NCBI GenBank assembly: GCA_014526335.1
Contig: JACTAT010000048.1
Coordinates: 1,996,046 to 2,060,045, forward strand
Source of the DNA: Chrysaora quinquecirrha
Taxonomy: Eukaryota; Cnidaria; Scyphozoa; Semaeostomeae; Pelagiidae
Direction: 5' to 3'
Length of the DNA: 64,000 nt
Within the stretch, counting starts at the first letter, position 1, and the number at the start of each line of letters is the position of its first letter. The position numbers were made by a program, and so were the translations under genes. Shown piece by piece: positions 3,776-58,344 of the stretch. The notes beneath the pieces were generated by a model, which saw only the letters and a list, made by a program, of their open reading frames with translations, had not been told where the DNA came from and did no database searches.

Positions 3776-4175
3776 ATGGAGGACGAACAGCTTGATGAAA
3801 TTGAAGCGATTGAATTAAAATACAACATTGTGTTTAAAGATTTTTAATTTTTATGTGGTAGCGATGTGATAGTTGTAGCGCCAACTGGGTAAAACTTATT
3901 GTTTTGCCTTTTTGACTGAGGTTTTCAACTTACAAGACGAGAAGAAGGGCCTAATGAATGCACCAGCACTTGCTATATCACCATTGACAGGACTAATTGT
4001 TGAACAAACGGAACGCTTAAAATCTCTTCGACTTAGTGCTGCTTTTATAGGCGAGATGCAGACAGATGAGACAGTTAAACAGTCGATAAAAGATGGGAAG
4101 GTGGACGTCCTCTTTTAAACCCCCGAGGCAGTCATAGAGTCCAAATGGAGAAAAGTTTTGTCGTCTGCTCACTAT
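3776..4175 (+). pseudogene. RecQ-like helicase, N-terminal exon piece (decayed)
   Basis: A weak frame from the ATG at 3776 encodes a RecQ-type start. The Walker A region (DVIVVAPTG then KT) is destroyed by a stop and a frame change near 3890. The frame continues with helicase motif Ia (LAISPLTGLIVEQ), and the 'VLF.TPEAVIESKW' block near 4110-4150 contains an in-frame TAA. The frame is cut at 4175 by an ISL2EU-type transposon and resumes at 8346. Superfamily-2 DNA helicases of this type unwind DNA in repair. The family is common in repeats of invertebrate genomes, so this may itself come from a mobile element. Non-functional. Confidence 0.75.
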
Positions 4176-4306
4176 AGACCTTTTCGGCCGGCCCTGACAA
4201 GCGCGCGTAGCAACCGTTACTGGGTGAAAACAGACCGCAATGGCTACGACTGGGCAGTGAAAGTAAACGCATAAAAGTCAAGTTTTTAAAGAATTTCGCT
4301 GCAAAA

Positions 4307-6031: not shown

Positions 6032-6146
6032 GAAAAAAAATGTTACTTGACCTAATTCTTGATACTCAACTGATTTTACTGGCCTCTGTTTGAAAAGCTA
6101 ATCATGTGATATACATATATTAATAAACAGATTTGAAGTTGGCATC

Positions 6147-8192
6147 TTATTTTGTTTCTGCTTTTCTTGTTGTTTTCTTACAAAATTTGCAATACCAAAC
6201 CCCCTTTGGAGCTCTTTTTAGTTTTATGCAGGTAAAGTGGAACCACTTGTATTTGCAAGATGGGTTGTCACACCCTATCATTTCATCTCCCTCGCATTCA
6301 GGTTGTTGGCAGACACAAAATAACTCATTTGTATTTTTCTTGTGCTCTGTTTCATCAATTTCTAGCTCCAGTTTTCTTGTAACCAGCTCTGGTGCAATGT
6401 GACATTTGTGAAATTCCACCAATGTTTGTAAATGGTGATCAAACTCCTTATCATACTCAACTTGTGTATAAAAGCAGAACTGAGGATTCCAGACTGTAAA
6501 GTACGAATGCTTGATTCCATACACATTCATTTGCAGTTGCACTTGTGCCATGTAAGGATGATTTTCTTTGAGATTTAGGTCATCACCAATACAAAAAGAT
6601 TTATCTGTGAAGCATGAGTTGATTTTTGGCTTTTCCTTGTGCTTGAAAGGACATTTGATCTCTATCAAAAAATCCCCATGGCAATCGCATGTTCCCAGAC
6701 CATCTGCAGAGGCTCCAATGAAATCAAATTCAGGATGGAGTCTCAATCCTGTTTTCCTTGTTTTTAAGTTTTGATGACTTTTCATCAATTCCTTAGTTAA
6801 GGCCTGGAGTGCATTTTCTTCATTGTTTGTACCCCATAAAATGGCAGGGGTATTTATTTCTGGACCCTGTGTGCATATTTTCAAGATAAGAGATTTTGAG
6901 GGTTTTTCCATACTGGTATGCAGCACACTATGTGCAATTGATGCTGTGATGCGGCCAACCCTCATGTCATGCCATGCTAAAGACTTAGCTTGTGCCCTGG
7001 TGCTTCTCTCGATGAAATCTTTGTCTGCCTCAGAAATTTTGTTCTGATAAACCCTATCAATATCTTCACTTTTTGCATTAGGAGAATACAGCTCTCTCAG
7101 CGATTTTGGCAATTTTGGTATGTTTGGAATGGGAGCCTTGTGAATAAATGGCTTGGCAAAATTTGCAAATGTGCTGAGGCCAACAGGCTGATCATAATGT
7201 GGTAAATCACCAAGTCTCTTAAGGATTTCATTTTGTGATTGAATTATTAGACCAGTTGAGCTTTTCCTGCTGGCAGCTGAATTTTTCTCAGCTTTATAAA
7301 AATTAACACCTTTAATCTGGACTCCGGGTATCTCAGTCACAAAGTCATTATTCCATATACAGGCTTTGGACGTGCAAGCAGCTTCTTTGGTGTAACCAAG
7401 CCGTACTGCTGCCTCAATTTTAAAAAGCAGAGCTCCAATATGTGAGCAGGATTCACCAATGCTATGGAGGAAGTAAAATTATAATTACACTTTTAAACCT
7501 CATAACAATTACTCGGCAAACCCATTTATCAATGGAATCAATCACTGCAGCACTAAATTTCCAATATACTAAGACAATTCTTATACCTAATAAAAAGAAC
7601 ACATTGGTTGATCAGTTTATCAGAATAGTAAAAAGAAAGCAGGCATCTATATCCTACCCTGCCATGCAGTTGCAATGTGCACACATAACTGTCCCATCTT
7701 TTTTGATAGCTACCCATGGCCTCAGTGCATCTTCAGACAACCTTTGAGAATGAAGGACTTTTGCAATCAAAACACATGTGTCCGCTCTTGTGTTGAGGCT
7801 TAAAACCTTCTGTACCCAACCAGACTGAAACTGGTTGTAAGCCTCCAACCCCTTTCTGCATTTCATGGACTGGCGTGTGTAAGGTCCTGGAAGAAGAAAG
7901 ATGTTTGAAATCAGTAACAACAATAAAATGGTAGGGCTAAAGAAGATGTAATTCAAGTTCTAAATTTCTAATTATAGCATTAAATAAAAAAAACAATCGT
8001 AAATTTACCTGGTGTTTCGATTAAATACTCGTAAACATCCGGACACTCCAAATTAGGCCATTTTACCAGATCACCAGACCAACAGCCCTCTGGAAGCTTA
8101 TAAGGACATTCGTTCAGGTTTACGGCTTTCAGCTTTTCCAAATATCTTTTTTTTGCTTCCTCTGGTAACTCATCGAAGTATTGATACGACAT
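6147..8192 (-). CDS. SWIM zinc finger - YqaJ nuclease - PHD finger protein, three exons
   Basis: Proposed exons are 8192-8009, 7886-7658 and 7461-6147, with GT donors and AG acceptors that keep phase. The total is 1,728 nt or 575 aa without internal stops. I chose the ATG of MSYQYF (8192). Domains in order: an N-terminal basic region; a SWIM-type finger assembled across the second intron (CNC...CSHIGALLFKIE); a YqaJ recombinase/PD-(D/E)XK nuclease (WHDMRVGRITAS, then GASADGL and LIEIKCP as the acidic and ExK motifs); and a C-terminal PHD finger (FCVCQQ...WFHFTC...WYCKFC). YqaJ proteins are exonuclease-like. In ISL2EU elements the protein accompanies the transposase, and its exact job is unknown. 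It is intact while its partner transposase is broken. Confidence 0.82.
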
Positions 8193-8345
8193 TTTATTAA
8201 AAAATTCGACGAATAACGATGGAAAACGACTAGCAAAACAGTACCGTCCGTATACAAGAAGCTGCCATGAACCTGTTGTTTTCACCCAGTTAGAAATGGT
8301 TGTCACTGACAACGCTCCGCGTGACGTCACACCGAAAAGGTCTAT

Positions 8346-8380
8346 AGCATAAGGATTAGAGCCATTGTATTTCCAGTTGG
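8346..8380 (+). pseudogene. RecQ-like helicase, short exon remainder after transposon
   Basis: The codons here (SIRIRAIVF) continue the helicase frame interrupted at 4175 and correspond to the start of the DEAH-box region. A GTGAGT splice donor follows at 8380. The DEAH box is not recognisable, and the phase does not match the next acceptor near 11255, in keeping with decay. Confidence 0.6.
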
Positions 8381-8384
8381 TGAG

Positions 8385-9135
8385 TTGGTAGGAAAATTGA
8401 GGCTTGAACCATATCCACGCATTAGATAGTCATTTTTGACATTTTTTAGCTCGTAAATAGACTACCACTAGACAACTAATTTTTACATTATAATATGAGG
8501 CTGTAGCCTTGAACTAACATAAATTAGGCACAATTAATTATATTTCTATTGGTATTTGAACTACGTTTAATCGGTTTCTTGCTAAATTGACAAAAATATC
8601 ATGTAAAACAAATCAAAGATTACAGTAGGTACTACATTAACATTATTACAGATAATGATTGAAATTACATAAGCGTAGGTCTATGTAGCTACCTTTGCAT
8701 AATTGCTATGCACTGAATTAAAAAGTCAAATAAAGATATTGTTATCTTGGTTTGAATACCCTAATATTAAATATCTACCAAATAAAAATTGAGGTACATA
8801 ATGTTAACGGACAACCAAGCAAACAAATAAAATGTTGAATAAATTAATTTTTGAAATTATCAAAAGTTAAATTATTTACTATTATATAGCTTGAACTATT
8901 TACTATGATAAAGCCTTTCTCAAAACTGAACAAAACTCAAAATACGTGACAAACTAGTAAACTATATCTTTGGATATAATAATAGAAAAGGACCATTTGC
9001 TGTACAAGTTAATTGCTTTTTGAGTCTCAAAATGCTCTTGAATTTTCAGCGTACTTCAAGAGTTTTGTTCATTTCTAATTCATATTAGAATTTTCTATAA
9101 CAGTCTACTTTAACATTTTACTGCATTACACTTAC
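8385..9135. other. non-coding AT-rich stretch
   Basis: No coding frame, RNA gene or element end was recognised. It lies in the putative helicase intron and downstream of the last DUF6589 exon seen. Confidence 0.6.
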
Positions 9136-11255
9136 CTTACACGTTGATAAACATATTCTATAATTCCTTATCACATATATAGCAGTCAATGTCTTGTTTT
9201 TTGATAGCTCATTTATTTTCTCCTTCAGCCACTTGTCAAGTTTGTCCCAGTTGATCTGCCTTGAAATCTTGACATTTCGAAAACTGTAATGAAAATGCCC
9301 TGTTTTTTATTTCAAAAAGTTTCTCGTGCTGTAGTTCCTCCACCATCAAACAAACATCTTTCTCAAAAAAACTGGTTTTATGTCGTCCGATAGACAAGAG
9401 TTTTTCGATTTGAATGTCGATGCTTCTCTCTAACTCTTTGCATCCCTTTATTGATTTCACGACCCTTTCTATTGTCTATGATGTGAGGCTACCATACTTG
9501 TGCTTGAGATCAGGCTTTACTTCTCCGTTTAACAGTTCTATTGCGTAATCTAAAGGTACATTTCTTTCATCTCCGCCATGAAGGTTAACCGTCCTGTTGT
9601 ATAGAAGCTGAGCAAATTTTCTATTACTCAGCAAGAATTCAACTTGTGCTATGAAATTGAATGCCAACCCTGAGTACACAGTGTAACCGGTTGCAACAAA
9701 CTGAAGGAAATTATTCCAAATGAGAAACGTATGTTCACCATCCCCTTCACAACTTTCATGTTTTCTGGCGAGATGCAGCAGACCTTCCCGAAGCAGCTTC
9801 TTCGAATAATTGAGAATACGATCATCTAAAGGATTACCTTGATCTTGCTCTATCGTGTTCTCCAGTTGCTATCAACTTGAGAATCGCTGCAATGATTCCT
9901 CATCTCACAGGTCATTTTGTGCTTTTTCCTTACGATTCCATCATTTGCGAAGGTCTTAAAGCATCCAGGGAATCCACATTTGAATCTACCTTGTTCTGTT
10001 GATGGGCTTGTTGCTTGACTAGCTTCATGCAGACGTTTTGGTGAATCCTCATCAGGTAAAACATGCTTCTTCACTAGACTCATCGTGATGGCATTAAGGT
10101 ATTTTATCTTGTCATCGTCAGTTTCGTTCTAGTTGTCAACTGGTCTTGCATCTTTATCGTCGATTTTTAATTCTTCCATCGCAGCCAGAACAGTATATCC
10201 ATAGGTGACGAAATTGGTAAATTTGCGTGAGGCATGCACGGAAACTTTCACTTCTTTCTTTACATTTCGTCTGTCGAATCTTTGTTTGAGTTGGTACAAA
10301 GTGCCTTTTTAGCGACAGAAGAAGCCTTATACATATCAGTGAATAGCATCTGCATGGGATGAAAAAGGATTCTATGTAAGACTTTTACCCAACATTAGCT
10401 CATTTGTTCATAACAAAACACAATCAACACGGTGGCTACGACAGAAAAGTCAACGTACCTGTAAACAAAGTACAGTTTCATGCCAGTCTTCAGATTTCAT
10501 AATTAATCCTTCGAAGCGTTTTTCTAATGTTGGGGCATCTGCTCTGGCGTTTTGGGCTTCCACACCACATTTCGCTGTCAATCCGTCTCCACCGCAAAGA
10601 ATCTTTTTGTTGACCAGTTACCTTTACACAATACTGCTGATAATAATCTAATATTGAAATCATATCTTCAGTGAATATTTCGTTCTTTTCTAAAAGGCCA
10701 AGTGGAACCTGGGAAATGAGATATTTGATCTTAAGATTTTACCTTAAATATTATTTTGGAAAGTAACTCAATGATGTAAAACATGGCTCACCACTTTTGA
10801 TCTTTTTGACATTTCATCTTTGTATTTATGGGTCATACGTTTGGAAACCAGATGTGAATATTCTTCTCTGCGAGTTTTGCTTGTAATTTCTCGTATTCAT
10901 TTTCTGTCATTATCAACAGATCTGGATCGGCTGTAGCGATGCTATGGTTTTTTTCTACATCAGACAGATCTTCCACATTTACTCTATCTTTAGCTATTAT
11001 AGCTTGCACCAGGTCATATCGCATATTTGAATTATCTGCTGTTTTGTGACAACGAACATTGCCCTGAAGATTGAGGTTATCAAAGCAAATCATGAAGCCT
11101 GGTTTTAATGTCGGTACCTCTTTGCTCTGGCCTTCCTAAAGGAATAATTTGAAAAAAAATGATTGATATTTGAAATAAAAAGAAGAATTCTAGCTATACG
11201 CTCATCTCCATCAAATGACGATCTTGAGACAGGACTGTTTCTTTCTTTCTTTCTA

Positions 11256-12428
11256 GGGGCAATGATTTCAGATCATGCTATCGAAGGCTTGCAGAAATGA
11301 AATCTTTTCTGCAGAAAGATGCAATATTTATTACATTGACTGCAACAGCAACAAATCGAATAAAAGATTACATAAGTAAATGCTTGTTGTTGTCCGAGCC
11401 TAGCGTTATTTATGTGCCCACTGGGCAAAATAATGCGTATTACCAAGTCATAAGATGCAATCCAGGTGACTTTTCTTTTTTTGATTATTTTATTGCCCTT
11501 CTCCGCTCCAAGAAAAATTTGGCAAAAAAGATGATAATATATTGTAGAAATGTGAAGACAGTCTCAAAACTTTTTGGTTTCTTTAGTCTTGCACTGGGGA
11601 AGGAGCAGTTTCTTGGAAACATTGGAGTTTGCGACAAAAGGCTTCTTGCAATGTTTAATCGCTCAACAGCAGAAGAGAGCAAGGCCCATGTTTTGCAAGA
11701 ATTCAAAAAGCCTGATTTGGTTCTTCGTGTTGTCATTGCTACATCTTCATTTGAGATGGGTCTTGACTTCCCAGACGTAAGTCTAGTAGTCAATTATGGT
11801 GTTCCTCAAAGCCTTGAATCTTTCGTTCAGCAGAGTGGTAGAGGAGGAAGAAACATAGAGAGTGCATACTCAGTCATTTTATGCGACAGGGTAATAGGAA
11901 AAGGAACAACAACGGACGAGATGAGGAGATATGTGGTTTCTGCAAAACACTGTACAAGGCAGCACCTCAGGCAACACTTTGCAATGAACTTGGATCACTC
12001 AAAAGATTCATTTTTTCCCCAGTCTCTTGATAGCCCCGTAGGTTGTTGCTGTTGTGACATATACAGACAAGCCTGCGATTGTGGAAGTTGTTCTGCAACG
12101 CAATGAAAGTTTATCAGGTCATGAAACTGATATCGACAAAGACGGCGTCATGTCTGAAGCTGAAGAGTCTCTTCCAAGTTCAATTCTTTCTGATGAAAAA
12201 ATAAAGCTACTTGAAGCCAACTTTGAAGACTATTGTATTTACTTGTACGAACCAAAATTTGGTTCAAATCATGCGTCATATAGTTTGTGGACGTTGGTGG
12301 TCGAACAGATTTTAAGAATGTGCTCAACTATAGGTAGTGTGGACGACATTTTAACTGACACCCTTCTTGAAGACCTTGAACTTGCGGATGACATTTTTTC
12401 TTTGATAAATGAAGTAAGGCAGGTGTAG
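11256..12428 (+). pseudogene. RecQ-like helicase, C-terminal part
   Basis: After a polypyrimidine tract and tag acceptor near 11255 the frame reads GNDFR..YRRLAEMKSFL. It continues with motif III (ITLTATAT), motif IV (MIIYCRNVKT), motif V (VVIATSSFEMGLDFPDVSLVVNYG) and motif VI (FVQQSGRGGR). A zinc-binding-like CCCCDIYRQACDCGSC segment follows near 12050. The frame then ends at 12106 and coding character continues in another frame to 12428 (acidic C-terminus), so a frameshift or missed intron lies near 12050-12100. The helicase core motifs here are well kept, but the N-terminal piece is ruined, so the whole gene is a pseudogene. Confidence 0.8.
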
Positions 12429-17140: not shown

Positions 17141-17192
17141 ACAATTGGTTTGGCTCTAGAAGTTTCCAGAAGAAGGGAAAGTCTCTATAAAA
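17141..17192 (+). promoter_or_regulatory. promoter A, unit 1 (CCAAT, heat-shock element, TATA)
   Basis: It contains caattgg (inverted CCAAT), then GAA-TTC-GAA spaced by two bases (17159-17171), then TATAAAA at 17186-17192. This lies about 35 nt upstream of the ATG at 17227, so the leader would be very short. Confidence 0.65.
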
Positions 17193-17462: not shown

Positions 17463-17663
17463 GAAGTTTCCAGAATGTTCTAGAACGTCCCTAAGAATCC
17501 TCTTATCTGATTGGCTAGAACTTTCTAGAAGTTTCCAGAATGTTCCACAAGATTCTAGAAACAAGAAATCCTACAATCTCTCTGGTTAATAATTTGAACA
17601 TCACGTTCGAATCGTCTATATATATATATAATATATATATATATATATCTATATATATATAAA
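17463..17663 (+). promoter_or_regulatory. promoter B, unit 1 (multi-unit heat-shock elements, TA-repeat TATA)
   Basis: HSE1 at 17463-17485 has five alternating GAA/TTC trimers, each spaced by exactly two bases. HSE2 at 17518-17545 has six. A CCAAT box (gattgg) lies between them. CGTTCGAATC follows at about 17605, then a (TA)n tract of about 46 bp ending tataaatc. The ATG is at 17704. This matches the layout of animal hsp70 promoters. Confidence 0.8.
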
Positions 17664-17703: not shown

Positions 17704-18346
17704 ATGAAGAGAAGCGAAGAAGAGAATTCGATTTCCTTGTGATGTTTGCCAGAAACACTACAGCACAAGAATCAAAATGAGATGCCACATGATGTCTATA
17801 CATTCAACTCCATCAATTATATTAACTTCTCAAATTATACGTTGTGGAAAGTATTTGCAACTACCTACATACATCCAAAACAAGAGGGCTGTTATCAATG
17901 TACAGAACAAAGACGATGCTTCATCTAGGCAATTCTATCCGCTCTAAATCCACCAGCAAAACATCCACAGAGAGTTGCAAAGTATTACCCATACTCAGAT
18001 GAACTTAATTGTGAAGGATTGACATATCCAGTAAAAGCAGACAATGAAAAGATGATTGATACATTTGAAATAAACAACAACATTTCAATCAACATCTATA
18101 TGGATGAAGATGGTGAAAATTTTACCCGTAAGAACAACTAAAGTTCATCGTGAAAAACAGGTGCATTTGCTATTGATAACCAATGAGGATGGTGAGAGTC
18201 ACTATTGCTGGATAAAGGACTTGAGTCGTCTTTTTGCAGGTCGTTTAGTTCATAAACATGGTGGAAAGCGTTTTTACTGTCCTCTATGTCTAACATCATG
18301 TATAACTCAAGACAATTTGGAAAAACATAAAAAGTTATGTAAATAA
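17704..18346 (+). pseudogene. PolB N-terminal fragment B (short), unit 1
   Basis: An ATG after promoter B begins MKRSEEEN. A C2H2 finger (FPCDVCQKHYSTR..H..H) follows, fused directly to the GGKYLQLPTYI..KRAVINVQN block typical of the Polinton protein-primed DNA polymerase B N-terminus. The region ends with HYCWIKDLSRL and a C-x2-C finger (CPLCL..H..LC). It lacks about 230 residues present in fragment C and everything after the second finger, so no exonuclease or polymerase domain exists. Frames break after the first finger and at a 4-bp deletion after gacgat. This unit also has a TAG at 17927 where others read TGG. Confidence 0.78.
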
Positions 18347-18550: not shown

Positions 18551-18735
18551 AATAATCCTACAATCTGATTGGCTAGAACTTTCCAGAAAAAGGGAAAAGT
18601 CCCTAATAATCCTACAATCTGATTGGCTAGAACATTCTAGAAGTTTCCGAAGTTTCCACAAGATTCTAGAAACGTGAAATCCTACAATCTCTTTGGTTTA
18701 TAATTGGAACGCGACGTTCGAATCATCTATATAAA
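18551..18735 (+). promoter_or_regulatory. promoter C, unit 1 (tandem CCAAT/HSE modules, TATA)
   Basis: The module cctacaatctgattggctagaa occurs twice and a related cctacaatctctttgg once. Each is followed by GAA/TTC arrays (GAActTTCcaGAA near 18577; GAA-TTC-GAA-TTC near 18634-18648, continuing to 18671). ACGTTCGAATC sits at 18714-18724 and TATATAAA at 18728-18735. The ATG is 29 nt past the TATA end. Confidence 0.8.
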
Positions 18736-18763: not shown

Positions 18764-20329
18764 ATGAAGAGCTCACACGAAGAAGAGAGCTCAGCGGCTA
18801 ATAATAGTAAGCAAAGAATAATCGCTTGCAATGTATGTGGGAAATTGTTTGAAAGAATGTTAAATCTCGCATCACATAGGCGAACAGCGCATGATATACA
18901 CCCATCAACAGCAGAACAAAATAAATTAGTCGGTGAAGGTAAGAAAATGAACAAGATGGATATGAAAGCATTTAGAATATATACCGAAAAAGAAGATATC
19001 AAAGACAGGGCAAGAATCACACAACATACTATTCAAGAAATTAAAGAAGATTGCCAGGCCACAAGCAGGGGATAAAGTATTATATCACTATTGATGTCGA
19101 ATTTAAAAAGTATGGTGATAAGCCTATGGTTACAGAAGCACCACCCACATTCAGAACCACCGTGCATGCGTTGTTAAGGTCAGAGTATGACTATGTTGAA
19201 GATCAAGTAGTTGAAGCTATCAACACACTACGAGATAAGGTTGATGAATTCTTGGAGAATGGAAGTGGTTGGATATTTGCAAAGTTTACCCAACTGCAAG
19301 TGAAGATGTTTAATTATGAAGCAATTCGGGTGGAAAGTATTTGCAACTACCTACATACATCAAAAACAAGCGAGCCGTCATCAATGTACAGAACAGAGAC
19401 GATAAATGCTTCATCTGGGCAATCCTATCCGCTCTACATCCATCAGCAGAACATCCACAGAGAGTTGCAAAGTATCGTCCATTCTTGGATGAACTTAACT
19501 GTGAAGGATTGACATATCCAGTGAATTTAACCGATAAAAAGATTATTAATACATTTGAAATAAACAACAACCTTTTAATCAACATCTATATGGATGAAGA
19601 TGACTCAATTGTACCAGTAAGAATAACTGAAGTTAAACGTAAAAAACATGTGCATTTGCTGTTGATATTCAATGACTATGGTGAGAGTCACTATTGCTGA
19701 ATAAAGGACTTGAGTTGTCTTTTGCAGGTCGAGATGGTGAAAAACATCACGGAAAACGTTTTATCTGTCCTCTATACTTTTCGGGGTGTACAACTCAACA
19801 AAATTTTTAAAAGCATGAAAAGCTATGTCAGACCCTTCAAGCTGTTGAATATCGTCGAGATACAGAATTGAAGTTTGAACATTTCAAGCATCAGAGCTGG
19901 CTACCATTTATCATCTATGCAGATACTGAATCCATTCTGGAAAGCTCAAACAGAAGAGCTGCTTATCAAGAACATAAGCTGATCAGTTATTGCATTTATG
20001 TCAAATGTATCGATGATAGATGGCAACAACTGTTGGAATGCTATAATGGTGAAGACTGCATGGAGGTGTTGATGAATCGGCTAGATGATTTGAATGAGGA
20101 AATCCGAGCAGTGTTCAAGAAAACCATGCCGATGATTAGATTAACACCTGAAGAAAGTGCAAGACATGATAGGGCTACACACTGTTATTGCTGCAAGCAG
20201 TTATTTGATGATAAGGATAAGAAGAAAGTCAAAGATCATTGTCAAATTACTGGGAAATACAGAGTTCCAGCTTGTAAGTATTGCAAATTTAATCATCTAT
20301 ACGATGCAGGATTTATAGTTGATCTATGA
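18764..20329 (+). pseudogene. PolB N-terminal fragment C (to exonuclease motif I), unit 1
   Basis: It starts MKSSHEEESS and carries a clean C2H2 finger (CNVCGKLFERMLNLASHRRTAH). Next come a ~110-residue segment (VTEAPPTFRTTVHALL...), the GGKYLQLP..DDKCFIWAILSALHP block, the HYC block, and YADTESILE, which matches exonuclease motif I of family B polymerases. The last conserved part is CYCCKQLF...VKDHCQITGKYRG..C.YCKFN, the treble-clef region before the palm. It then ends after YDAGFIVDL, so the polymerase palm and fingers are absent. Lesions: frame change near 19070, a lost G at 19327, TGA at 19698 where fragment B has TGG, and a TAA near 19807. Confidence 0.85.
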
Positions 20330-24604: not shown

Positions 24605-24922
24605 TAAGGCCCGATTACACTATCACATTCAGGTACAATTTGCTTCTAGTTTTTTCCGTGATCGCGGACAACGAGAGAATGTGATAGTGTAAATCACCGC
24701 TCCAAGGTGCTTGTATTTGCTTGTTGTGTGGAATTTTAATCCATCTTGAGGAAAAAACTTTTGATCGCTGTTCAAAAAGATTTCCATCATCTTGAAGTTT
24801 TTCAAAGGAGCCGACAATTAACCCAAAATATTGCGCCAAAATATTGATGAACGTTTTGGCGCGAAAACTGGTTGAGTTGGATTGGAAGGAAGGTTGAAAA
24901 TAATCAAGAAATTTAATCAAGA

Positions 24923-26263
24923 ATGACTAGTGAATTTGCGAGATTTAAGCAGTGGATGGCACAAAAACGTCACGACGAGCAAAGGTAAGATTAAGGTTGA
25001 ATATTTAATAATGATTATCACATTTCAAGTGGTGGAAATTCAAAAGGGATATATATATATAGACTATTATCATTTTTAGGCCAATTCCAACTTAGATTGC
25101 TGCACAATATCAACGTACCTCGCAAGTAACCTAGTTTGTTTTTCTTAGAAATGAAGATCCAGATAGTCTAGATGAAGACGAAGTTGAAGAAATGAGTATG
25201 CCTGAAGCTTCAATTATAACAGCGCCTGCAGCAACACCCCAATTGCAAACAACAGCAGTAGGCCCACCTAAGAAGCGTACAAGGAAGGACAAGAAATTCG
25301 AGTGGAAAGATCATGTGGTGGAAAAGTTAATTTTACTATGGCAAGAACAGCCATTGCTATACAACGTAAGCCACCCGCAATACCACATAAAGGAGAAAAG
25401 AAGAAATTGCATAAATGCAATTGTGAGTAGTTTGGGAGAAGATACTGAGGTAATGTTTTCCTTAAAACTCATCATCCTAGTAAGTAAACAAAACATTTTT
25501 TTAAACTTACATGCTTCCCTCCATCCCATTTAAGCTACTGTTTTATTTGCAGGTCGAACAAGTTCCATCCCTTGATGATGTGTCAAAAAAGATCAATGCC
25601 CTTCGGTCATACTTTGTTGGGGAGAGAAATAAAACTGAGCAATCCAAAGTTAGTGGTGCAGGTGCTGCTGAAGTTTACCGGTCAAAATGGCAGTTTTATG
25701 AAAGCTTATTATTTCTATCAGACAATGTGACACCACGCCCAACAATATCAAATGTGGCAAGGAGAACTGCCCTAGCCGAAGGAGTAGCCAATGATGTATC
25801 ACCAGCCTCTGCCTCAGCATACAAAATAGATAACAAGCCATCTTCCAAATCAGCAAAAGAAATGGATGCAGCAAGAACAAACAAATTGCTTGAGTCTGCT
25901 ATCCAAGTACTGAATGCACCCCAAGAGAAAAATGTTTCTCGAAAGTCAGATGACGATATTTTTGGAGAACTGATTGCCAATTTGCTGAAAAAAATCCCTG
26001 AAGGAGAAACAAAAGATTTCTTAAAAATGGATGTTCAAAGAATGATTCTGGAAGCAAAATATAGGGTACCACCCCAGAATATATTTGGCTCAAATCAGGC
26101 TGGCAACTTCAACAACTCTTTTCAAGGAACGCAATCCTGCTTTGAGAACCAGATGTTTAGCCAGCATATCATGCCATTCAACAGACCAAGTCCAAGTTCA
26201 TCCCATACAGAGTCATCTTCCTCAAGAAGTGCTGGCTTTAATAATGAGCTAACAGAACTATGA
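24923..26263 (+). CDS. Harbinger accessory DNA-binding protein (MADF domain), three exons
   Basis: Proposed exons are 24923-24984, 25149-25449 and 25553-26263, with GT-AG introns of 164 and 103 bp and consistent phase. The start MTSEFARFKQWM leads to an acidic stretch (LDEDEVEEM). A MADF domain is split by the second intron: VEKLILLWQEQPLLYNVSHPQY in part before it, then KWQFYESLLFL after it. The C-terminus is Ser/Asn-rich. In Harbinger elements this Myb-like partner carries the transposase into the nucleus and binds the ends. No stops or frameshifts were seen. Confidence 0.85.
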
Positions 26264-26431
26264 ACTACAATTTTGTGTTTATGGTGAGCAATTTGTGACA
26301 TTTACATGGGTTTTAGTATATTGATTTCATTTTTTCAGACACATTGACATTGAAAAATGCAATTCTTTATTTTAAATTGTTTGCAAGTTTGTTGCTGTAT
26401 AGATCTACTCTGAATACAAATAATCAGATGT

Positions 26432-27673
26432 TTAACTATTAGAAACAAGACATTTCCACTGCCATGGTACCTGGCCTGGTCCATAAAAATGGTCAGCAAA
26501 GATCTCTCTGATGGTTTCAGCTGATTTTGCTATCTTGTTTCCATGTCTTCTCGCTGGAAGGGATTGTAAGCCTGTTTCAGTGCTATCTTTCCTCCATATT
26601 CCATCAGTGATCCTGTCATTTATGATCTCATCTACATATCCTTTTGGTGTGTATGATTCTCTTGACCTTGTCCTTAAAAGATTGTGCAGCACCAGTGATG
26701 CTAATACGACTGAGGTAGCTTTGTCTGGCTGAAGATTGATCTTGGTAGAAAATATTCTAAAAACATTGGTAAGAATTCCAAAAGCATTCTCAGTTACCCT
26801 CCGAAAACGGGAAAGTCTGTAATTGAATATCCTTTTCCTATCTGTGCATCCACGGTCCGGGTATGGCTTCAAGCAATGCTTTGTCAAGGGAAATGCGTTA
26901 TCTCCAACAAACACAAAAGGTACAGCTTCATTTGACTCAAAGGGCTGCCAAGCAGGATCCCCTGACAAAGGCAGCTGCCTTGGTGATGGTAGATTCAAAT
27001 TGTTATCTGCAAGTAAGCTGCAAATCGCTGAGTTCCTATAGACACCACCGTCACTAATTCTCCCTTGACATCCAACATCAGCGAAAATAAACTTGTAGTC
27101 AAAATCGACAAGGGCAAGTAGCACAATACTGTAAAAGCCTTTGTAGTTATAGAAGTTTGCACCAGAGTTCACAGGGTGATATATGGAGATGTGCTTACCA
27201 TCTGCTGCACCAAATGCATTTGGGAATTGCCATCTTTCCTCTGCACCTTGAGCTAACTTGATCCAATCTGCCTCCGATGTTGGAAAATGAAAGTACTCTT
27301 CTTTCAGGTTGTTGTATATTGCATCACATACAACAGGAACAAACTTTGTGATAGTAGACTGATGTATTCGGAATTGATATTGGAGACTCTCGAAGCTCTC
27401 TCCAGTTCCAAGAAATCGTAGAGTTACTGCCAGTTTCTGTTCTGCACTTAAGTCCTCCGTGTCGTTCAGTCTCAGCTCATTTATCAAACTTCCATAGATG
27501 CCCTTTCCACTGGCCTCCCTCTCTTTTAGCCAAGGTTTTACCCAGCAACTTCTCCTTTTTCTTTTGGGTTTCTTTTCTTTCTTGATAACGCAATAAATTA
27601 TCATTGCCGCTGCAGCCTTCCTTCGCCCTTCATTGTAATCATCTTCTGAATCCTCCATTTTTGCTAACCTCAC
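26432..27673 (-). CDS. Harbinger DDE transposase
   Basis: 413 codons, uninterrupted. The DDE_Tnp_4 nuclease domain shows the three acids in context: FGAADGKHISIY (Asp), GRISDGGVYRNS (Asp) and RRVTENAFGIL (Glu). An N-terminal helix-turn-helix-like region (LRFLGTGESFESLQYQFRIHQSTI) is typical. It is convergent with the MADF gene. The start at 27673 gives MRLAKMEDSEDDYNEGRRK; the second Met, six codons in, is also possible. It likely catalyses cut-and-paste transposition into TWA sites. Confidence 0.93.
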   Translation of the reverse strand: MRLAKMEDSEDDYNEGRRKAAAAMIIYCVIKKEKKPKRKRRSCWVKPWLKEREASGKGIYGSLINELRLNDTEDLSAEQKLAVTLRFLGTGESFESLQYQFRIHQSTITKFVPVVCDAIYNNLKEEYFHFPTSEADWIKLAQGAEERWQFPNAFGAADGKHISIYHPVNSGANFYNYKGFYSIVLLALVDFDYKFIFADVGCQGRISDGGVYRNSAICSLLADNNLNLPSPRQLPLSGDPAWQPFESNEAVPFVFVGDNAFPLTKHCLKPYPDRGCTDRKRIFNYRLSRFRRVTENAFGILTNVFRIFSTKINLQPDKATSVVLASLVLHNLLRTRSRESYTPKGYVDEIINDRITDGIWRKDSTETGLQSLPARRHGNKIAKSAETIREIFADHFYGPGQVPWQWKCLVSNS

Positions 27674-28002
27674 TCGACCACTGCACTCGACACCTACTCA
27701 TCAGCAACTACAATCGCGCCAAAATGGTGGTTAACTCAACTAGTCTTCGCGCCAAAATGTTCATTGCATGACCAATATTTTATGTTAATTGTCGGCTCCT
27801 TTGAAAAACTTCAAGATGATGGAAATCTTTTTGAACAGCGATCAAAAGTTTTTTCCTCAAGATGGATTAAAATTCCACACAACAAGCAAATACAAGCACC
27901 TTGGAGCGGTGATTTACACTATCACATTCTCTCGTTGTCCGTGATCACGGAAAAACTAGAAGCAAATTGTACCTGAATGTGATAGTGTAATCTAGGGCCT
28001 AA

Positions 28003-28950: not shown

Positions 28951-29135
28951 TAATAATCCTACAATCTGATTGGCTAGAACTTTCCAGAAAAAGGGAAAAG
29001 TCCCTAATAATCCTACAATCTGATTGGCTAGAACATTCTAGAAGTTTCCGAAGTTTCCACAAGATTCTAGAAACGTGAAATCCTACAATCTCTTTGGTTT
29101 ATAATTGGAACGCGACGTTCAATCATCTATATAAA
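28951..29135 (+). promoter_or_regulatory. promoter C, unit 2
   Basis: Same modules as unit 1; one base is lost in the CGTTCGAAT motif (acgttcaatc). TATATAAA is at 29128-29135 and the ATG at 29163. Confidence 0.75.
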
Positions 29136-35328: not shown

Positions 35329-35515
35329 GAAGTTTCCAGAATGTTCTAGAACGTCCCTAAGAATCCTCTTATCTGATTGGCTAGAACTTTCTAGAAGTTT
35401 CCAGAATGTTCCACAAGATTCTAGAAACAAGAAATCCTACAATCTCTCTGGTTACTAATTTGAACATCACGTTCGAATCGTCTATATATATATATAATAT
35501 ATATATATATATAAA
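35329..35515 (+). promoter_or_regulatory. promoter B, unit 3
   Basis: Five-unit HSE at 35329-35351, CCAAT box, six-unit HSE, CGTTCGAATC and a (TA)n tract of about 33 bp. ATG at 35556. Confidence 0.8.
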
Positions 35516-36400: not shown

Positions 36401-36585
36401 TAATAATCCTACAATCTGATTGGCTAGAACTTTCCAGAAAAAGGGAAAAGTCCCTAATAATCCTACAATCTGATTGGCTAGAACATTCTAGAAGTTTCCC
36501 AAAGTTTCCACAAGATTCTAGAAACGTGAAATCCTACAATCTCTTTGGTTTATAATTGAACGCGACGTTCAATCATCTATATAAA
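36401..36585 (+). promoter_or_regulatory. promoter C, unit 3
   Basis: Same modules; TATATAAA at 36578-36585; ATG at 36614. Confidence 0.75.
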
Positions 36586-36613: not shown

Positions 36614-38184
36614 ATGAAGAGCTCACACGAAGAAGAGAGCTCAGCGGCTAATAATAGTAAGCAAAGAATAATCGCCATATGTATGTGGGAAATTGTTTGA
36701 AAGAATGTTAAATCTCGCATCACATAGGCGAACAGCGCATGATATAGCTACACCCATCAACAGCAGAACAAAATAAATTAGTCGGTGAAGGTAACAAAAT
36801 GAACAAGATGGATATGAAAGCATTTAGAATATATACCGAAAAAGAAGATATCAAAGACAGGGCAAGAATCACACAACATACTATTCAAGAAATTAAAGAA
36901 GATTGCCAGGCCACAAGCAGGGATAAAGTATTATATCACTATTGATGTCGAATTTAAAAAGTATGGTGATAAGCCTATGGTTACAGAAGCACCACCCACA
37001 TTCAGAACCACCGTGCATGCGTTGTTAAGGTCAGAGTATGACTATGTTGAAGATCAAGTAGTTGAAGCTATCAACACACTACGAGATAAGGTTGATGAAT
37101 TCTTGGAGAATGGAAGTGGTTGGATATTTGCAAAGTTTACTCAACTGCAAGTGAAGATGTTTGATTATGACGCAATTCGGGGTGGAAAGTATTTGCAACT
37201 ACCTACATACATCAAAAACAAGCGAGCCGTCATCAATGTACAGAACAGAGACGATAAATGCTTCATCTGGGCAATCCTATCTGCTCTACATCCATCAGCA
37301 GAACATCCACAGAGAGTTGCAAAGTATCGTCCATTCTTGGATGAACTTAACTGTGAAGGATTGACATATCCAGTGAATTTAACCGATAAAAAGATTATTA
37401 ATACATTTGAAATAAACAACAACCTTTTAATCAACATCTATATGGATGAAGATGACTCAATTGTACCAGTAAGAATAACTGAAGTTAAACGTAAAAAACA
37501 TGTGCATTTGCTGTTGATATTCAATGACTATGGTGAGAGTCACTATTGCTGAATAAAGGACTTGAGTTGTCTTTTTTGCAGGTCGAGATGGTGAAAAACA
37601 TCACGGAAAACGTTTTATCTGTCCTCTATACTTTTTTGGGGTGTACAACTCAACAAAATTTTTAAAAGTATGAAAAGCTATGTCAGACCCTTCAAGCTGT
37701 TGAATATCCTCGAGATACAGAATTGAAGTTTGAACATTTCAAGCATCAGAGCTGGCTACCATTTATCATCTATGCAGATACTGAATCCATTCTGGAAAGC
37801 TCAAACAGAAGAGCTGCTTATCAAGAACATAAGCTGATCAGTTATTGCATTTATGTCAAATGTATCGATGATAGATGGCAACAACTGTTGGAATGCTATA
37901 ATGGTGAAGACTGCATGGAGGTGTTGATGAATCGGCTAGATGATTTGAATGAGGAAATCCGAGCAGTGTTCAAGAAAACCATGCCGATGATTAGATTAAC
38001 ACCTGAAGAAAGTGCAAGACATGATAGGGCTACACACTGTTATTGCTGCAAGCAGTTATTTGATGATAAGGATAAGAAGAAAGTCAAAGATCATTGTCAA
38101 ATTACTGGGAAATACAGAGGTCCAGCTTGTAAGTATTGCAAATTTAATCATCTATACGATGCAGGATTTATAGTTGATCTATGA
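36614..38184 (+). pseudogene. PolB N-terminal fragment C, unit 3
   Basis: First finger destroyed as in unit 2. One G is missing near 36921 (gcagggataaag). The open frame 36977-37552 reaches the shared TGA, and 37723-38184 holds YADTES and the treble-clef region. Confidence 0.83.
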
Positions 38185-39413: not shown

Positions 39414-39992
39414 TTTGTCTCCAATTGACTTTCAGCTACCCACTCATCAAATTGTGGAGGATAACCTCTCCATCTGATTAAATAGAAGTTTTGCCCTCTT
39501 CTTCTTAGTTTTCAACACTTGCTCGACAACAAATGTTTTTGGAAGATACACACGCTGTAGCTCTTCTTTATAGAAACGATCAACTATCTTTTCACCTTGT
39601 AGATCTTCAATTTCATACATTACAGGATATCTTTCTTTAAAGACTTTACTGATCTTCAATATTTCTTCAGTGTAATTTTGCAAGTAACCTTTCTTAAATA
39701 TTCTCTTCTTCAAACTCAATCTTACATAATCACCAGTTTTGAAAAGCTTTTTATTTTTTCTGGTTTCTTTTTTAAACAGTCTTTTTCGAACAGTGTCAAC
39801 ATTGTCTTGGTTGACTTCAGAAGGTCTCATACCAATAGATCTGTGGTATGTATTATTGTATGAGTTGACAAAATTCTAGAGGTTTTACCCACGCATACTT
39901 GCTAAAAGTATCAATACAGCATAAGAGGAATGTAATGTTGTCATTTTCTTTTTTAAAATGCGCCATATCAACAAAATCACATTCCCATGAAT
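39410..39992 (-). pseudogene. Polinton integrase remnant, unit 4
   Basis: Same core deletion; chromodomain frame broken as in unit 2. Confidence 0.8.
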
Positions 39993-42783: not shown

Positions 42784-42954
42784 GAAGTTTCCAGAATGTT
42801 CTAGAACGTCCCTAAGAATCCTCTTATCTGATTGGCTAGAACTTTCTAGAAGTTTCCAGAATGTTCCACAAGATTCTAGAAACAAGAAATCCTACAATCT
42901 CTCTGGTTAATAATTTGAACATCACGTTCGAATCGTCTATATATATAATATAAA
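42784..42954 (+). promoter_or_regulatory. promoter B, unit 4 (short TA tract)
   Basis: Five-unit HSE at 42784-42806, CCAAT, six-unit HSE and CGTTCGAATC. The (TA)n tract is only about 17 bp, the shortest of the five. ATG at 42995. Confidence 0.8.
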
Positions 42955-43841: not shown

Positions 43842-44028
43842 TAATAATCCTACAATCTGATTGGCTAGAACTTTCCAGAAAAAGGGAAAAGTCCCTAATA
43901 ATCCTACAATCTGATTGGCTAGAACATTCTAGAAGTTTCCCGAAGTTTCCACAAGATTCTAGAAACGTGAAATCCTACAATCTCTTTGGTTTATAATTGG
44001 AACGCGACGTTCGAATCATCTATATAAA
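43842..44028 (+). promoter_or_regulatory. promoter C, unit 4
   Basis: Complete modules including ACGTTCGAATC; TATATAAA at 44021-44028; ATG at 44057. Confidence 0.78.
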
Positions 44029-50253: not shown

Positions 50254-50407
50254 GAAGTTTCCAGAATGTTCTAGAACGTCCCTAAGAATCCTCTTATCTG
50301 ATTGGCTAGAACTTTCTAGAAGTTTCCAGAATGTTCCACAAGATTCTAGAAACAAGAAATCCTACAATCTCTCTGGTTAATAATTTGAACATCACGTTCG
50401 AATCGTC

Positions 50408-51355: not shown

Positions 51356-51542
51356 TAATAATCCTACAATCTGATTGGCTAGAACTTTCCAGAAAAAGGG
51401 ACAAGTCCCTAATAATCCTACAATCTGATTGGCTAGAACATTCTAGAAGTTTCCCGAAGTTTCCACAAGATTCTAGAAACGTGAAATCCTACAATCTCTT
51501 TGGTTTATAATTGGAACGCGACGTTCGAATCATCTATATAAA
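51356..51542 (+). promoter_or_regulatory. promoter C, unit 5
   Basis: Complete modules; TATATAAA at 51535-51542; ATG at 51571. Confidence 0.78.
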
Positions 51543-55592: not shown

Positions 55593-56267
55593 CTATTTAT
55601 AACCTTTTTTAGACTTGTACACCACTAAAGGAGCTTCATTAGGGAAAACATTAGTGCAAAATCTCATATCTTCTCCAATCGATTGTGTGAAATCACAAAG
55701 TAAGTAGCCGTACATTCTTACTGTTGCATCATTGTAAATGTCAAGGAATGTTTTTGGAGATGAGGGCATAATTTGTCGCACAAGAAATCTAATTTTACTT
55801 CTATCTCAAGGATTCTTGAAAAGAACTTGATACTGAGTATTGAGAGCTAAATTTCTCATTTCTGTTCCTCTTGGAAAAGGGTTTTGCATCATAACAATTA
55901 CATTGATGTTTTGATGAGATCTTCCTTTTGTGAACAATTTTCCCAAATCTTGAAAGTTGGCAATTTCATGCATTAAATCATCGACAACAATAGTCAATCG
56001 TTTGTCCAATCTTTCGATTTCTTCGTACAAGTTTTCAGGCAGCTCAGTAATAAATCTACAATTCCCGTTAAAACATTTTTTAACGTGCTCAAACAATTCC
56101 GGTTGATTTGTTCCCGAGATCCAAATAAGGTTGGGATATTGTCTGCCATTTTCAATTATATTGTTATAATTTTTTAACAGATTTTCTACCCAAGTCGTTT
56201 TGCCGCTTCCGCTTACTCCAGATAAAATCAAAGAAAAAGGTGCTTTAAATCTCAAATCGTAACTCAT
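55593..56267 (-). pseudogene. Polinton DNA-packaging ATPase (one in-frame stop)
   Basis: FtsK/HerA-like (A32-type) packaging ATPase. Walker A GVSGSGKTTW lies near residue 18-27 and Walker B LTIVVDDL near the middle, with the sensor-like NINVIVMMQNPFPRGTEMR. The family pumps DNA into capsids. I prefer the ATG at 56267 (MSYDLRF) because a TATAAATA box lies at 56317-56310, leaving only about 20 nt to the upstream ATG at 56294. A single TGA in FKNP-stop-DRSKIRF (near 55807) sits where an Arg CGA is expected, and the frame continues unshifted to 55593. Otherwise about 225 codons, normal for the family. Confidence 0.88.
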
Positions 56268-56309
56268 ATTTATAACAAATTTTAAACATCTCATACAACA
56301 GGTAACATC

Positions 56310-56409: not shown

Positions 56410-57380
56410 CTAGGCAAATGCCATGATTAAATTGTTTATTATTCTGCTCAATATTTGCAGCAGATACATTGATGTGAAGAGACTTGGATGAGATAATTCA
56501 TCATGCAGATTTTCAACTCTGGATTTGATTGTTTGATTCAGTCGACCATTCTTCTTCTTCAGCTCATCAAACATTGATTTCTTAAACGAATCTTTCCCTT
56601 CAGCTAGCATGTCGGAGTTAACATAACTAATGTGAAATGATAGAAATCTGAAAGCATTATGTACCATACAATCTTGCTTATGATCAGCAGCATCAATTTG
56701 TTTTGTCCACATCTCTGTAGTTGCACACGTATCTCAGGAGAACTTCCCCATATGCTTCTTGCACTTGAACATCAATCTTTGTTGGATCTTCTTCTTCTTG
56801 TTTCTTTTTCTTCTTTTGAATCTGCTCATCATCACTTGCTGGTCTTTTCCGGGATGGGTGTGGAAGCATCTTCAGCTCAGCAACCTTTCCATGCAATGCT
56901 TTCAGCATTTCTTCTTTCAGATTTATTCCCGTCTTTGATGGCTTCTCATTCTTCCATCTTCGGATTCCAAGACAGAGGGAAATCATCATTTTTCTGCAGA
57001 TAGATTTCCAGCTTATCCTCATACGCTTCTTCTTTACTCAAAACTTCAGTGTATAGTGTTAGAAACTGTGTGATCCTGCCAAAATACTGCTTTGATTGAA
57101 TGTGTACTTTGTTCTTCTCAAACAGACTTTCAACATCTTCTCCGCGGAACTGGAATTGATCGTTTATGTTTTCATCAACTATTTCCAGGAGACCTGCTGC
57201 ATGAGAAATACCCATTGACCTTACAGATGCACCTTTTAGGTTTCTTTCAGCACAGCCATTGTATCTTGCAACTGCTGCTGCATCTTTCAATACTAACAAC
57301 CATTTGTTAGAACCAGATTGTACAGCAAATGATGACTTGATTAGGCCCTCTTCATCTCTAACTTCATAAATTATAGCCAT
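56410..57380 (-). pseudogene. unknown Polinton gene X with heat-shock-type promoter
   Basis: No family recognised. Coding runs through three frames: 57446-56946, about 57000-56693 and 56712-56410. Two frameshifts or short introns are implied, near 56950-57000 and 56700. The N-terminus (MAIIYEVRDEEGL) is globular. The middle has a bipartite nuclear-localisation-like tract (RKRPASDDEQIQKKKKK) and the C-terminus is helical with EELKKKNGRLNQ-type heptads. The ATG at 57446 lies too close to the TATA box to be in the transcript, so I place the start at 57380. The promoter resembles those of the PolB fragments, so X may be an early regulatory or replication protein. Confidence 0.6.
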
Positions 57381-57454
57381 GATTTTTAAGCTCCACACTC
57401 TATGACAACTTGTTACAACTGAACTGATTTGGTTTTGCGCATCCATTTTATAGA

Positions 57455-57590
57455 TTGATCGAACGTGACATTCGAATTATTAACCAATCAGATTGCAGGA
57501 TTTCTCGTTTCTAGAATCTTGTGGAACATTCTGGAATCTTGTGGAACATTCTGGAAACTTCTGCAAAGTTCCAACCAATCAGATCACTAC
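57455..57590 (-). promoter_or_regulatory. promoter of gene X (CCAAT, HSE, CGTTCGA, TATA; minus strand)
   Basis: Read on the minus strand: gattgg near 57582, GAA-TTC arrays at about 57563-57530 (GAAgtTTC-type trimers at two-base spacing), and tctagaaac near 57512. Then cctgcaatctgattggt, CGTTCGATC at about 57468, and CTATAAAATGG at about 57455. Same order as promoters B and C. Confidence 0.75.
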
Positions 57591-57677: not shown

Positions 57678-57764
57678 GTCGCTTTCTACGCTTTCTTCTC
57701 ACACCACCACCAGCTAATTGTGTCGCTTTCTACGCTTTCTTCTCACACCACCACCAGCTAATTG
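57678..57764. repeat. 44-bp tandem duplication
   Basis: gtcgctttctacgctttctt... starts at 57678 and again at 57722. It covers the C-terminal end of the 103-aa ORF. The minus strand beyond its stop reads an extremely basic frame (GGGVRRKRRKR...), suggesting that the original tail was longer. Confidence 0.85.
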
Positions 57765-58041
57765 CTATGGCACTACCTTTGGCAGCTGCTCTTGCGCCTT
57801 TTAATGCGAATTTTTTTACGGCTTGTTTGCTAATATTTCTAGTCACTGCTCTTCCTCCTTGCTTTATTGCTTGCCTAACTGCTGCTTGCGCTAATGCGGA
57901 CCCGATCTTTCTAGAATTTTCTAATGCTGACTTCCTTTTATAAACACCTCTCATCAACTCGGTTGCTTCCTGACCACCATCATTTTTTAACATATCATCA
58001 ATAATCATTGAAGCAATAATAGTTCCTGCCATTGACACCAT
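57730..58041 (-). CDS. 103-aa alanine/lysine-rich protein (candidate virion core protein)
   Basis: The start MVSMAGTIIASMIIDDML shares one base with the TAA of the 92-aa ORF (TAATG). A helical, Ala-rich, basic region follows (AQAAVRQAIKQGGRAV, KKFALKGARAAAKGSA). The end SWWWCEKKA may be a frameshifted tail caused near the 44-bp duplication. Small basic Ala/Gly-rich proteins of this kind occur among minor virion proteins of Polintons and relatives; the assignment is inference. Confidence 0.5.
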   Translation of the reverse strand: MVSMAGTIIASMIIDDMLKNDGGQEATELMRGVYKRKSALENSRKIGSALAQAAVRQAIKQGGRAVTRNISKQAVKKFALKGARAAAKGSAIAISWWWCEKKA

Positions 58042-58319
58042 TATTTTAAATTGGATTTTTTAGCATATGCGAATTTATTCAGCGTTTTCTTTGGTACCCC
58101 AGCAGCTCTCCAGACTTCTGTAGGGATAAATTGTAAAGGTTTATCTTTTTTCCACCCCTTTTTCCTAATTCTCGGTTTCAATTCGCGCTGTAAGCCTGGT
58201 AATGGTGTAATGCCAATCGCTGTTTTGACAATCCAATTTTGAAGGTTTTTAAAAAGACCTTTACCTCTAATTCTTTTTATACGCTGTTTCTTTCTATCCT
58301 GTCTCTTACGTTTACCCAT
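58041..58319 (-). CDS. 92-aa basic protein (candidate minor virion protein)
   Basis: Starts MGKRKRQDRKKQRIKRIRGK, then an amphipathic segment (LFKNLQNWIVKTAIGITPLPGL) and another basic half. A nucleic-acid-binding or membrane-active minor capsid peptide is plausible. Intact. A TATAAATA box at 58352-58345 lies 26 nt upstream of the ATG. The stop overlaps the start of the 103-aa ORF. Confidence 0.55.
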   Translation of the reverse strand: MGKRKRQDRKKQRIKRIRGKGLFKNLQNWIVKTAIGITPLPGLQRELKPRIRKKGWKKDKPLQFIPTEVWRAAGVPKKTLNKFAYAKKSNLK

Positions 58320-58344
58320 CTTTAATTACTAGGTGCATGCATTG

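What the first reader, a model, noticed from the sequence alone, without database searches (positions are those of the whole stretch)
17463..17545. Perfect multi-unit heat-shock elements in Polinton promoters
In promoter B, five and then six alternating GAA/TTC trimers occur at exact two-base spacing (17463-17485, 17518-17545). The same arrays occur at 35329, 42784 and 50254. Shorter arrays lie in promoters A and C and in the gene X promoter (57455-57590). They are combined with CCAAT boxes and TATA boxes, the layout of hsp70 promoters. This suggests a virus-like transposon wired to heat-shock factor, so that it would be activated by host stress. I know of no description of this for Polintons.
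Basis: partly seen in the sequence, partly recalled or inferred. Interest (0 to 1): 0.87.

Follow-up and report, generated by a model that had tools for sequence, protein, structure and literature searches.

The report
Heat-shock promoters in Polinton transposons
A large family of virus-like jumping DNA (Polintons), in what is probably a jellyfish-type animal genome, carries long, perfectly spaced runs of the heat-shock-factor binding motif just in front of its replication and integration genes, so heat or other protein-damaging stress in the host would likely switch the element on.

Summary
The window holds 14 arrays of 4-6 perfect alternating GAA/TTC units at two-base spacing; shuffles give 0.03. 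The pattern is not local: the genome (328 Mb) has 1084 six-unit sites against 1 for the reversed motif. The 50 listed sites fall in 22 stretches; 22 of 22 match the Polinton promoter module, 11 of 22 lie beside Polinton genes. Chosen without regard to the motif, 27 of 30 ATPase loci and 7 of 7 readable PolB copies have arrays upstream. They sit mostly at one distance from TATA box and initiator, before PolB and before a gene X-ATPase-integrase row. A sister Polinton family lacks them upstream of ATPase, 0 of 7, and has far fewer ATPase matches. The host has HSF-type genes. Most likely one Polinton lineage acquired HSF-driven promoters before or during a large expansion; HSF binding and stress induction are inferred, untested. 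Heat-responsive transposons are known (ONSEN, HSE-Helitrons); my searches found none among Polintons. The window's B and C copies are broken tandem fragments; the genome-wide pattern is what matters.

The parts
17463..17485 (.). promoter B, distal HSE array, 5 perfect units
17518..17560 (.). promoter B, proximal HSE array; 6 perfect units to 17545, 9 units (8 perfect) with one mismatch per unit allowed
17510..17514 (+). CCAAT-type box (ATTGG) of promoter B, between its two arrays; TATA-like TA run 17617-17661; initiator-like motif 17687; ATG 17704
17708..18138 (+). truncated PolB-N-type ORFs with a weak C2H2-like finger (below Pfam cut-off), downstream of promoter B
18576..18647 (.). promoter C HSE arrays, 3 and 4 perfect units; TATA 18728, initiator-like 18747, ATG 18764
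18966..20326 (+). PolB N-terminal region fragments downstream of promoter C
28977..29048 (.). promoter C HSE arrays, second unit
35329..35411 (.). promoter B HSE arrays, third unit (5 + 6 perfect units)
36427..36523 (.). promoter C HSE arrays, third unit; 36481-36523 is 9 units with 7 perfect
36818..38181 (+). PolB N-terminal region ORFs (36818-37549, 37666-38181); the first gives 152 matches in the genome (150 candidates scored of 622)
39450..39875 (-). C-terminal part of Polinton-type integrase (a fuller ORF in copy L023 matches rve; the window copy at 14301-14765 matches Chromo)
42784..42866 (.). promoter B HSE arrays, fourth unit
43868..43949 (.). promoter C HSE arrays, fourth unit (3 + 6 perfect units)
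50254..50336 (.). promoter B HSE arrays, fifth unit
51382..51463 (.). promoter C HSE arrays, fifth unit (3 + 6 perfect units)
17159..17171 (.). promoter A HSE array, 3 units (also 35018-35030, 42471-42483, 49940-49952)
57509..57571 (.). gene X promoter HSE array, 13 units with 10 perfect; perfect cores 57524-57536 and 57544-57561; ATTGG at 57488 and 57579, TATA 57452, initiator-like 57427 (minus strand)
56949..57446 (-). gene X (no Pfam family over cut-off), directly downstream of the HSE promoter
55809..56294 (-). packaging-type ATPase (Pox_A32 3.3e-6, over cut-off); 150 scored matches in the genome, some partial and 7 of them the sister family
57730..58325 (-). two small ORFs upstream of promoter X, found in other copies

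Best explanation
Long, perfectly spaced heat-shock-element arrays stand in front of the DNA polymerase gene and of the gene X-ATPase-integrase row in one large Polinton family of this genome, and host heat-shock factor would likely bind them and switch the element's replication and integration genes on under heat or protein-damaging stress. Shown: array spacing, position upstream of TATA and initiator-like motifs, spread over many dispersed copies, absence upstream of ATPase in a sister family, presence of host HSF-type genes. Inferred: the alternating units are bound by HSF trimers; binding raises transcription during stress; higher transcription raises replication and new insertions; gain of these promoters helped this lineage outgrow its sister. 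Variation in array length (3 to 13 perfect units) would be explained by selection for a stronger HSF response.
For: Window: 14 arrays of >=4 units against 0.03 in shuffles, none of >=4 at five other spacings. Genome: 1084 six-unit and 2599 four-unit sites against 1 and 114 for the reversed motif (sites overlap within long arrays). The 50 listed six-unit sites fall in 22 stretches (7 clusters seen in 15 overlapping loci, plus 15 stretches): 22 of 22 match the promoter module by blastn, 11 of 22 also encode PolB-N, gene X, ATPase or the small ORFs beside it. Without selecting on the motif: 27 of 30 ATPase loci have a >=4-unit array upstream, shuffles 0-0.03 per locus; 7 of 7 readable PolB upstream stretches (8 fetched, one half N) have 2-6 arrays of 3-13 units. 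Geometry: the last array ends 72 bp before the TATA box in 21 of 27 X promoters and TATA to initiator is 26 bp in 24 of 27; in PolB promoters 5 of 7 showed the TATA-initiator pair, 61-76 bp after the last array. After a TTCnnGAA anchor the next two units are kept at 0.64-0.82 and the spacers around them at 0.34-0.56, fading further out (261 contexts). Gene X, ATPase and rve integrase follow each other downstream of promoter X in L023. HSF-type domains in the genome. The one host hsp70 pair read has shorter arrays of the same motif. In another cnidarian, Nematostella, top heat-induced genes with three or more promoter HSEs were on average more strongly induced in two of three populations (PMC13104882, section 16).
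Against: No expression or binding data. 3 of 30 ATPase loci lack arrays (L028, L041, L047); of 7 older copies 3 lack even a 3-unit array (L100, L101, L104) and only 2 have >=4 units. The sister family, with two copies reported 100% identical over 156 residues, does without arrays upstream of ATPase, so they are not needed for recent activity. 11 of 22 site stretches show no gene X or ATPase match and no strong PolB match (L082 and L083 give a 29-residue PolB match only). The Nematostella pattern did not hold in its third population. The family is young, so conservation beyond shared ancestry is only weakly tested.
Confidence: 0.72

Rival explanations
1. The arrays bind HSF but serve constitutive or developmental expression, for example in germ line or early embryo, rather than a response to stress.
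For: Same sequence evidence as the best explanation; TATA and ATTGG motifs could give the promoters basal activity. HSF roles in gametogenesis are recalled, from no call.
Against: Arrays longer than those of the one host hsp70 pair read fit a strong inducible response better; this is an inference.
Confidence: 0.18
2. The arrays bind a factor encoded by the element, such as a C2H2 protein, or act as replication or terminal structures; the match to HSEs is coincidental.
For: A PolB-N-type ORF has a weak C2H2-like match (below cut-off), and some arrays lie in inverted end stretches.
Against: The gene X array of the C2 copy is internal, and such arrays are mostly 72 bp from TATA in other copies; the exact 5-bp alternating register is that of HSF sites.
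Confidence: 0.06
3. The arrays are a passive tandem repeat that spread with the element and have no regulatory role.
For: Array length varies between copies, as slippage would produce.
Against: Spacers vary more than units; distance to TATA is the same in 21 of 27; in the copy at C2:9.051-9.068 Mb the 7 listed six-unit sites lie in the end stretches or at gene X, none in the 12 kb between.
Confidence: 0.04

Closest known systems
HSE-bearing Helitrons of Caenorhabditis (PMC6927752, passages seen)
   Same: A DNA transposon carries many HSEs genome-wide; there HSF-1 binds them and the transposase mRNA is heat-induced.
   Different: Here the element is a Polinton with packaging-type ATPase, PolB and rve integrase; arrays sit in at least two of its own gene promoters. 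HSF binding and induction are untested here.
ONSEN / COPIA78 and other heat-responsive COPIA elements of Brassicaceae (PMC3907296, PMC5059998, abstracts seen)
   Same: Element promoter acquired a heat-responsive element used by host HSF; the strong element arose by duplication of a proto-element; most gains are species-specific.
   Different: Those are plant LTR retrotransposons; this is a large virus-like DNA element of an animal.
Polintons / Mavericks (polintoviruses; PMC4028283, abstract seen)
   Same: PolB, rve integrase, packaging-type ATPase, long inverted end stretches.
   Different: No heat-shock promoter in the passages seen of the papers that my searches listed for both subjects.
Drosophila Copia with sequences like hsp promoters (mentioned in a passage of PMC12910113)
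   Same: Transposable element with heat-shock-promoter-like sequence.
   Different: LTR retrotransposon; not examined further.
DIRS-1 of Dictyostelium (recalled, no call)
   Same: Heat-shock-type promoter in the element's terminal repeats.
   Different: Tyrosine-recombinase retrotransposon of an amoeba.

Membership tests
Heat-shock element (HSF site) | at least three alternating nGAAn units in contiguous 5-bp register | tested here: met
   26 arrays in the window; one-mismatch arrays of 9-13 units in B, C and X
Heat-shock element (HSF site) | bound by HSF | not testable with these tools
   host HSF-type domains exist; no binding data
Polinton / Maverick | protein-primed family B DNA polymerase | tested here: met
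   25 PF03175 matches in the genome, several next to PolB-N matches of this family; the window holds only N-terminal fragments; protein priming itself not tested
Polinton / Maverick | retroviral-type (rve) integrase | tested here: met
   L023 ORF rve 2.4e-12; window C-terminal part Chromo 5.3e-10
Polinton / Maverick | packaging ATPase | tested here: met
   Pox_A32 3.3e-6, over cut-off
Polinton / Maverick | long terminal inverted repeats | tested here: inconclusive
   L078 and L080 are inverted and 89% alike over 1363 bp, outer edges about 16.6 kb apart; exact ends and target duplication not determined
Polinton / Maverick | major capsid protein, penton, protease | not tested
   no dedicated search; two window ORFs gave no Pfam match and one of them no PDB match below E 0.5
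Heat-responsive transposable element (ONSEN-like) | HSE in its own promoter | tested here: met
   27 of 30 ATPase loci and 7 of 7 readable PolB stretches
Heat-responsive transposable element (ONSEN-like) | transcription induced by heat through HSF | not testable with these tools
   no expression data
HSE-bearing Helitron | Rep-Helicase transposase | not tested
   no Rep-Helicase search was made; neighbouring genes found are Polinton genes

The most novel reading that the evidence does not exclude
An endogenous virus-like element of an animal has put its replication and integration programme (PolB; gene X-ATPase-integrase; perhaps a Bcl-2-like gene) under host heat-shock factor: a eukaryotic counterpart of stress-induced prophage, which multiplies or leaves when the host cell's proteins fail, and whose gain of this switch drove its expansion over a sister family without it.
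Probability: 0.35. Interest if true: 0.9.

Novelty: new variant of a known kind. Interest (0 to 1): 0.74.

Why it matters
Polintons are thought to sit near the root of many eukaryotic DNA viruses, yet what switches an integrated copy on is little known (recalled). A host stress signal written into the promoters makes that directly testable: heat the animal and look. If the 22 stretches read are typical of the 1084 six-unit sites, one element family has also spread hundreds of strong HSF sites over this genome, which could rewire the heat response of neighbouring genes, as shown for Helitrons in Caenorhabditis. Marine heat stress makes the question timely if the host is, as the mitochondrial genes suggest, a medusozoan.

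Tried and rejected
STAT-type sites (three-base spacing) and other spacings: no array of >=4 units at spacings 0, 1, 3, 4, 5. Chance in AT-rich DNA: shuffles 0.03; iid expectation 0.013 six-unit sites per genome against 1084. Ordinary hsp70 cluster: no Polinton module in the hsp70 stretch (L057). Viral database: the six-unit pattern occurs in 15 stretches of IMG/VR, which I did not examine, and no relative of the ATPase was found there. Other species: 31 ATPase homologues, the closest 93%, without DNA context, so whether sister species keep the arrays could not be tested. Sister family: I first took seven loci (L050-L056) for several families; one search shows they are one family, so the absence counts once. 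The stretches cover about 2.7 kb upstream of its ATPase, not its PolB promoter, and gene X was not recognised there. Trimer-against-spacer comparison is weakened by the family's youth and by overlapping contexts. A penton label for the ORFs at 38391-39402 rests on recall; PDB search gave nothing better than E 0.56. Bcl-2 identity of a neighbouring ORF is weak: best E 8.5e-4, below the Pfam cut-off, no PDB match. Promoter X as a DNA query gave 67 matches from 40 scored of 653 candidates; too capped to count copies.

Papers: one search listed one paper with both terms (PMC5056178; passages: unrelated uses); none. Of the 5 papers, PMC5056178 is the one above and the other 4 (PMC8947103, PMC12910113, PMC7922186, PMC11125864) were seen in passages; of the 3 all were seen in passages; of the 2 both in passages. 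None of these passages describes heat-shock elements in Polintons. Of only 12 of 162 were listed, and 12 of 23; of those 24 rows only one abstract was read (PMC4028283). The claim that no HSF-driven Polinton is in print rests on these searches of an open-access library only.

Full report
A scan of the window for alternating GAA/TTC at two-base spacing found 26 arrays of at least three units and 14 of at least four; 100 Markov shuffles gave means of 1.40 and 0.03, and five other spacings gave none of four units. With one mismatch per unit allowed, promoter B has 9 units (8 perfect), C has 9 (7 perfect) and gene X has 13 (10 perfect). In B, C and X a TATA-type motif, an initiator-like motif and a start codon follow; ATTGG lies beside or between the arrays; promoter A has neither ATTGG nor the initiator motif.

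Within the window the arrays are not independent. All but the gene X arrays and two stray three-unit arrays lie in a tandem array of units about 7.45 kb apart, 98-100% alike over many stretches and 70-92% over others, with broken PolB N-terminal ORFs, two ORFs without a family, and a piece of integrase. One unit lacks promoter B next to a Harbinger-like insertion. The decisive evidence therefore comes from the rest of the genome.

The genome (G000, 328 Mb) holds 1084 six-unit sites against 1 for the reversed motif, and 2599 four-unit sites against 114. Sites overlap in long arrays, so these are not counts of promoters. The tool lists only the first places: 50 six-unit sites on contigs C2, C46, C86 and C91, not a random sample. 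They fall in 22 stretches (7 clusters in the 15 overlapping loci L005-L019, and L075-L089). 22 of 22 match the window's promoter modules by blastn at E <= 1e-5; the four stretches around four-unit sites on C1 (L001-L004) and the hsp70 stretch (L057) do not. 11 of 22 encode PolB-N, gene X, ATPase or the small ORFs beside gene X. The other 11 align over more than 150 bp, arrays included, with PolB-linked stretches; part of this similarity is the motif itself.

Selected without regard to the motif, the picture is the same. Of the 30 ATPase loci cut out, the best of 150 scored from 399 candidates (one is the window copy), 27 have an array of at least four units upstream. I picked 8 PolB upstream stretches by hand from the 152 matches; one (L092) is half N, and 7 of the 7 others have two to six arrays, the longest of 13 perfect units. 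In 21 of 27 X promoters the last array ends 72 bp before the TATA box, and in 24 of 27 the initiator lies 26 bp after its start; 5 of 7 PolB promoters showed the TATA-initiator pair. Among 7 older copies (ATPase 73-89% identical) 4 have at least a three-unit array and 2 at least four units in the 700 bp read.

The genes behind the promoters are those an element needs to move. In copy L023 gene X, the ATPase (Pox_A32) and an rve integrase follow one another downstream of promoter X. Several PolB N-terminal matches of this family lie next to DNA_pol_B_2 matches. In a copy on C2 (about 9.051-9.068 Mb) the seven listed six-unit sites fall in the two inverted end stretches (six, one of them just before PolB-N) or at gene X (one), none in the 12 kb between.

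A sister family gives a contrast. Seven loci with ATPase 54-61% identical to the window copy turned out to be one family: searched with one of them, 8 long and 3 partial matches stand apart from 139 other ATPase matches among 150 scored of 375 candidates. None of the seven has even a three-unit array, exact or tolerant, in about 2.7 kb upstream, and these stretches hold no N. Its PolB promoter was not reached. This fits gain of the arrays in one lineage, which then grew large; it does not show that the arrays caused the growth, and two sister copies reported identical over 156 residues suggest recent activity without them.

The host side is present. HSF-type DNA-binding domains occur. The one divergent hsp70 pair read has shorter arrays of the same kind, at most 5 units with 4 perfect. 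A cox1 match has 10 in-frame TGA; the neighbouring cox2, read by code 4, keeps residues that I recall as conserved; a PolB-type match lies 2.5 kb from cox1. Together, by recall, this points to a medusozoan cnidarian; the species was not identified.

How it likely works: stress frees and trimerises host HSF, which would bind the arrays and raise transcription of PolB and of the integration row. Binding and induction are inferred. The nearest proven cases are Helitrons of Caenorhabditis, whose HSEs are bound by HSF-1 and whose transposase is heat-induced (PMC6927752, passages), and ONSEN in Arabidopsis (PMC3907296, abstract). In Brassicaceae COPIA elements such sites were gained repeatedly and mostly species-specifically (PMC5059998, abstract). 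In Nematostella, top heat-induced genes with three or more promoter HSEs were on average more strongly induced in two of three populations (PMC13104882, section 16).

Noticed in passing
window 13600-55000: Tandem array of units about 7.45 kb apart (five to six copies, 98-100% alike over many stretches) made of broken Polinton pieces.
   Followed up: partly
window 24651-27955: Harbinger-like transposon (DDE_Tnp_4 ORF and a MADF match just below cut-off, 183-bp inverted repeats 98% complementary) beside the PolB-N ORF of the unit that lacks promoter B.
   Followed up: partly
L081:911-1378, L085:1289-1693, L086:186-734: Bcl-2-like ORF next to HSE arrays in Polinton-derived stretches (Pfam E 8.5e-4 at best, below cut-off; no PDB match for the L086 ORF).
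   Followed up: partly
L074:886-1416: Fic-domain ORF (PF02661, 2.4e-10) near the small ORFs upstream of gene X in one Polinton copy.
   Followed up: no
L075:1-450, L076:1-465, L077:1608-1901: A related ORF, with a C2H2-finger match below cut-off in L075, repeated beside HSE arrays at C2:7.32 and 8.29 Mb; possibly a shortened derivative of the element.
   Followed up: no
L058 (G000:C179:1325925 region): Mitochondrial-type cox1 and cox2 with a PolB-type match 2.5 kb away in a long contig: nuclear insertion or assembly join.
   Followed up: partly
window 2011-12106: Other mobile-element pieces: reverse transcriptase (2011-2529), DDE_Tnp_4 (5189-6031), YqaJ (6147-7340), helicase C-terminal domain (11228-12106).
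   Followed up: no
L082, L083, L088: HSE-bearing stretches abut ORFs that look (by recall only) like BEL/Pao retroelement pieces, perhaps insertion sites.
   Followed up: no
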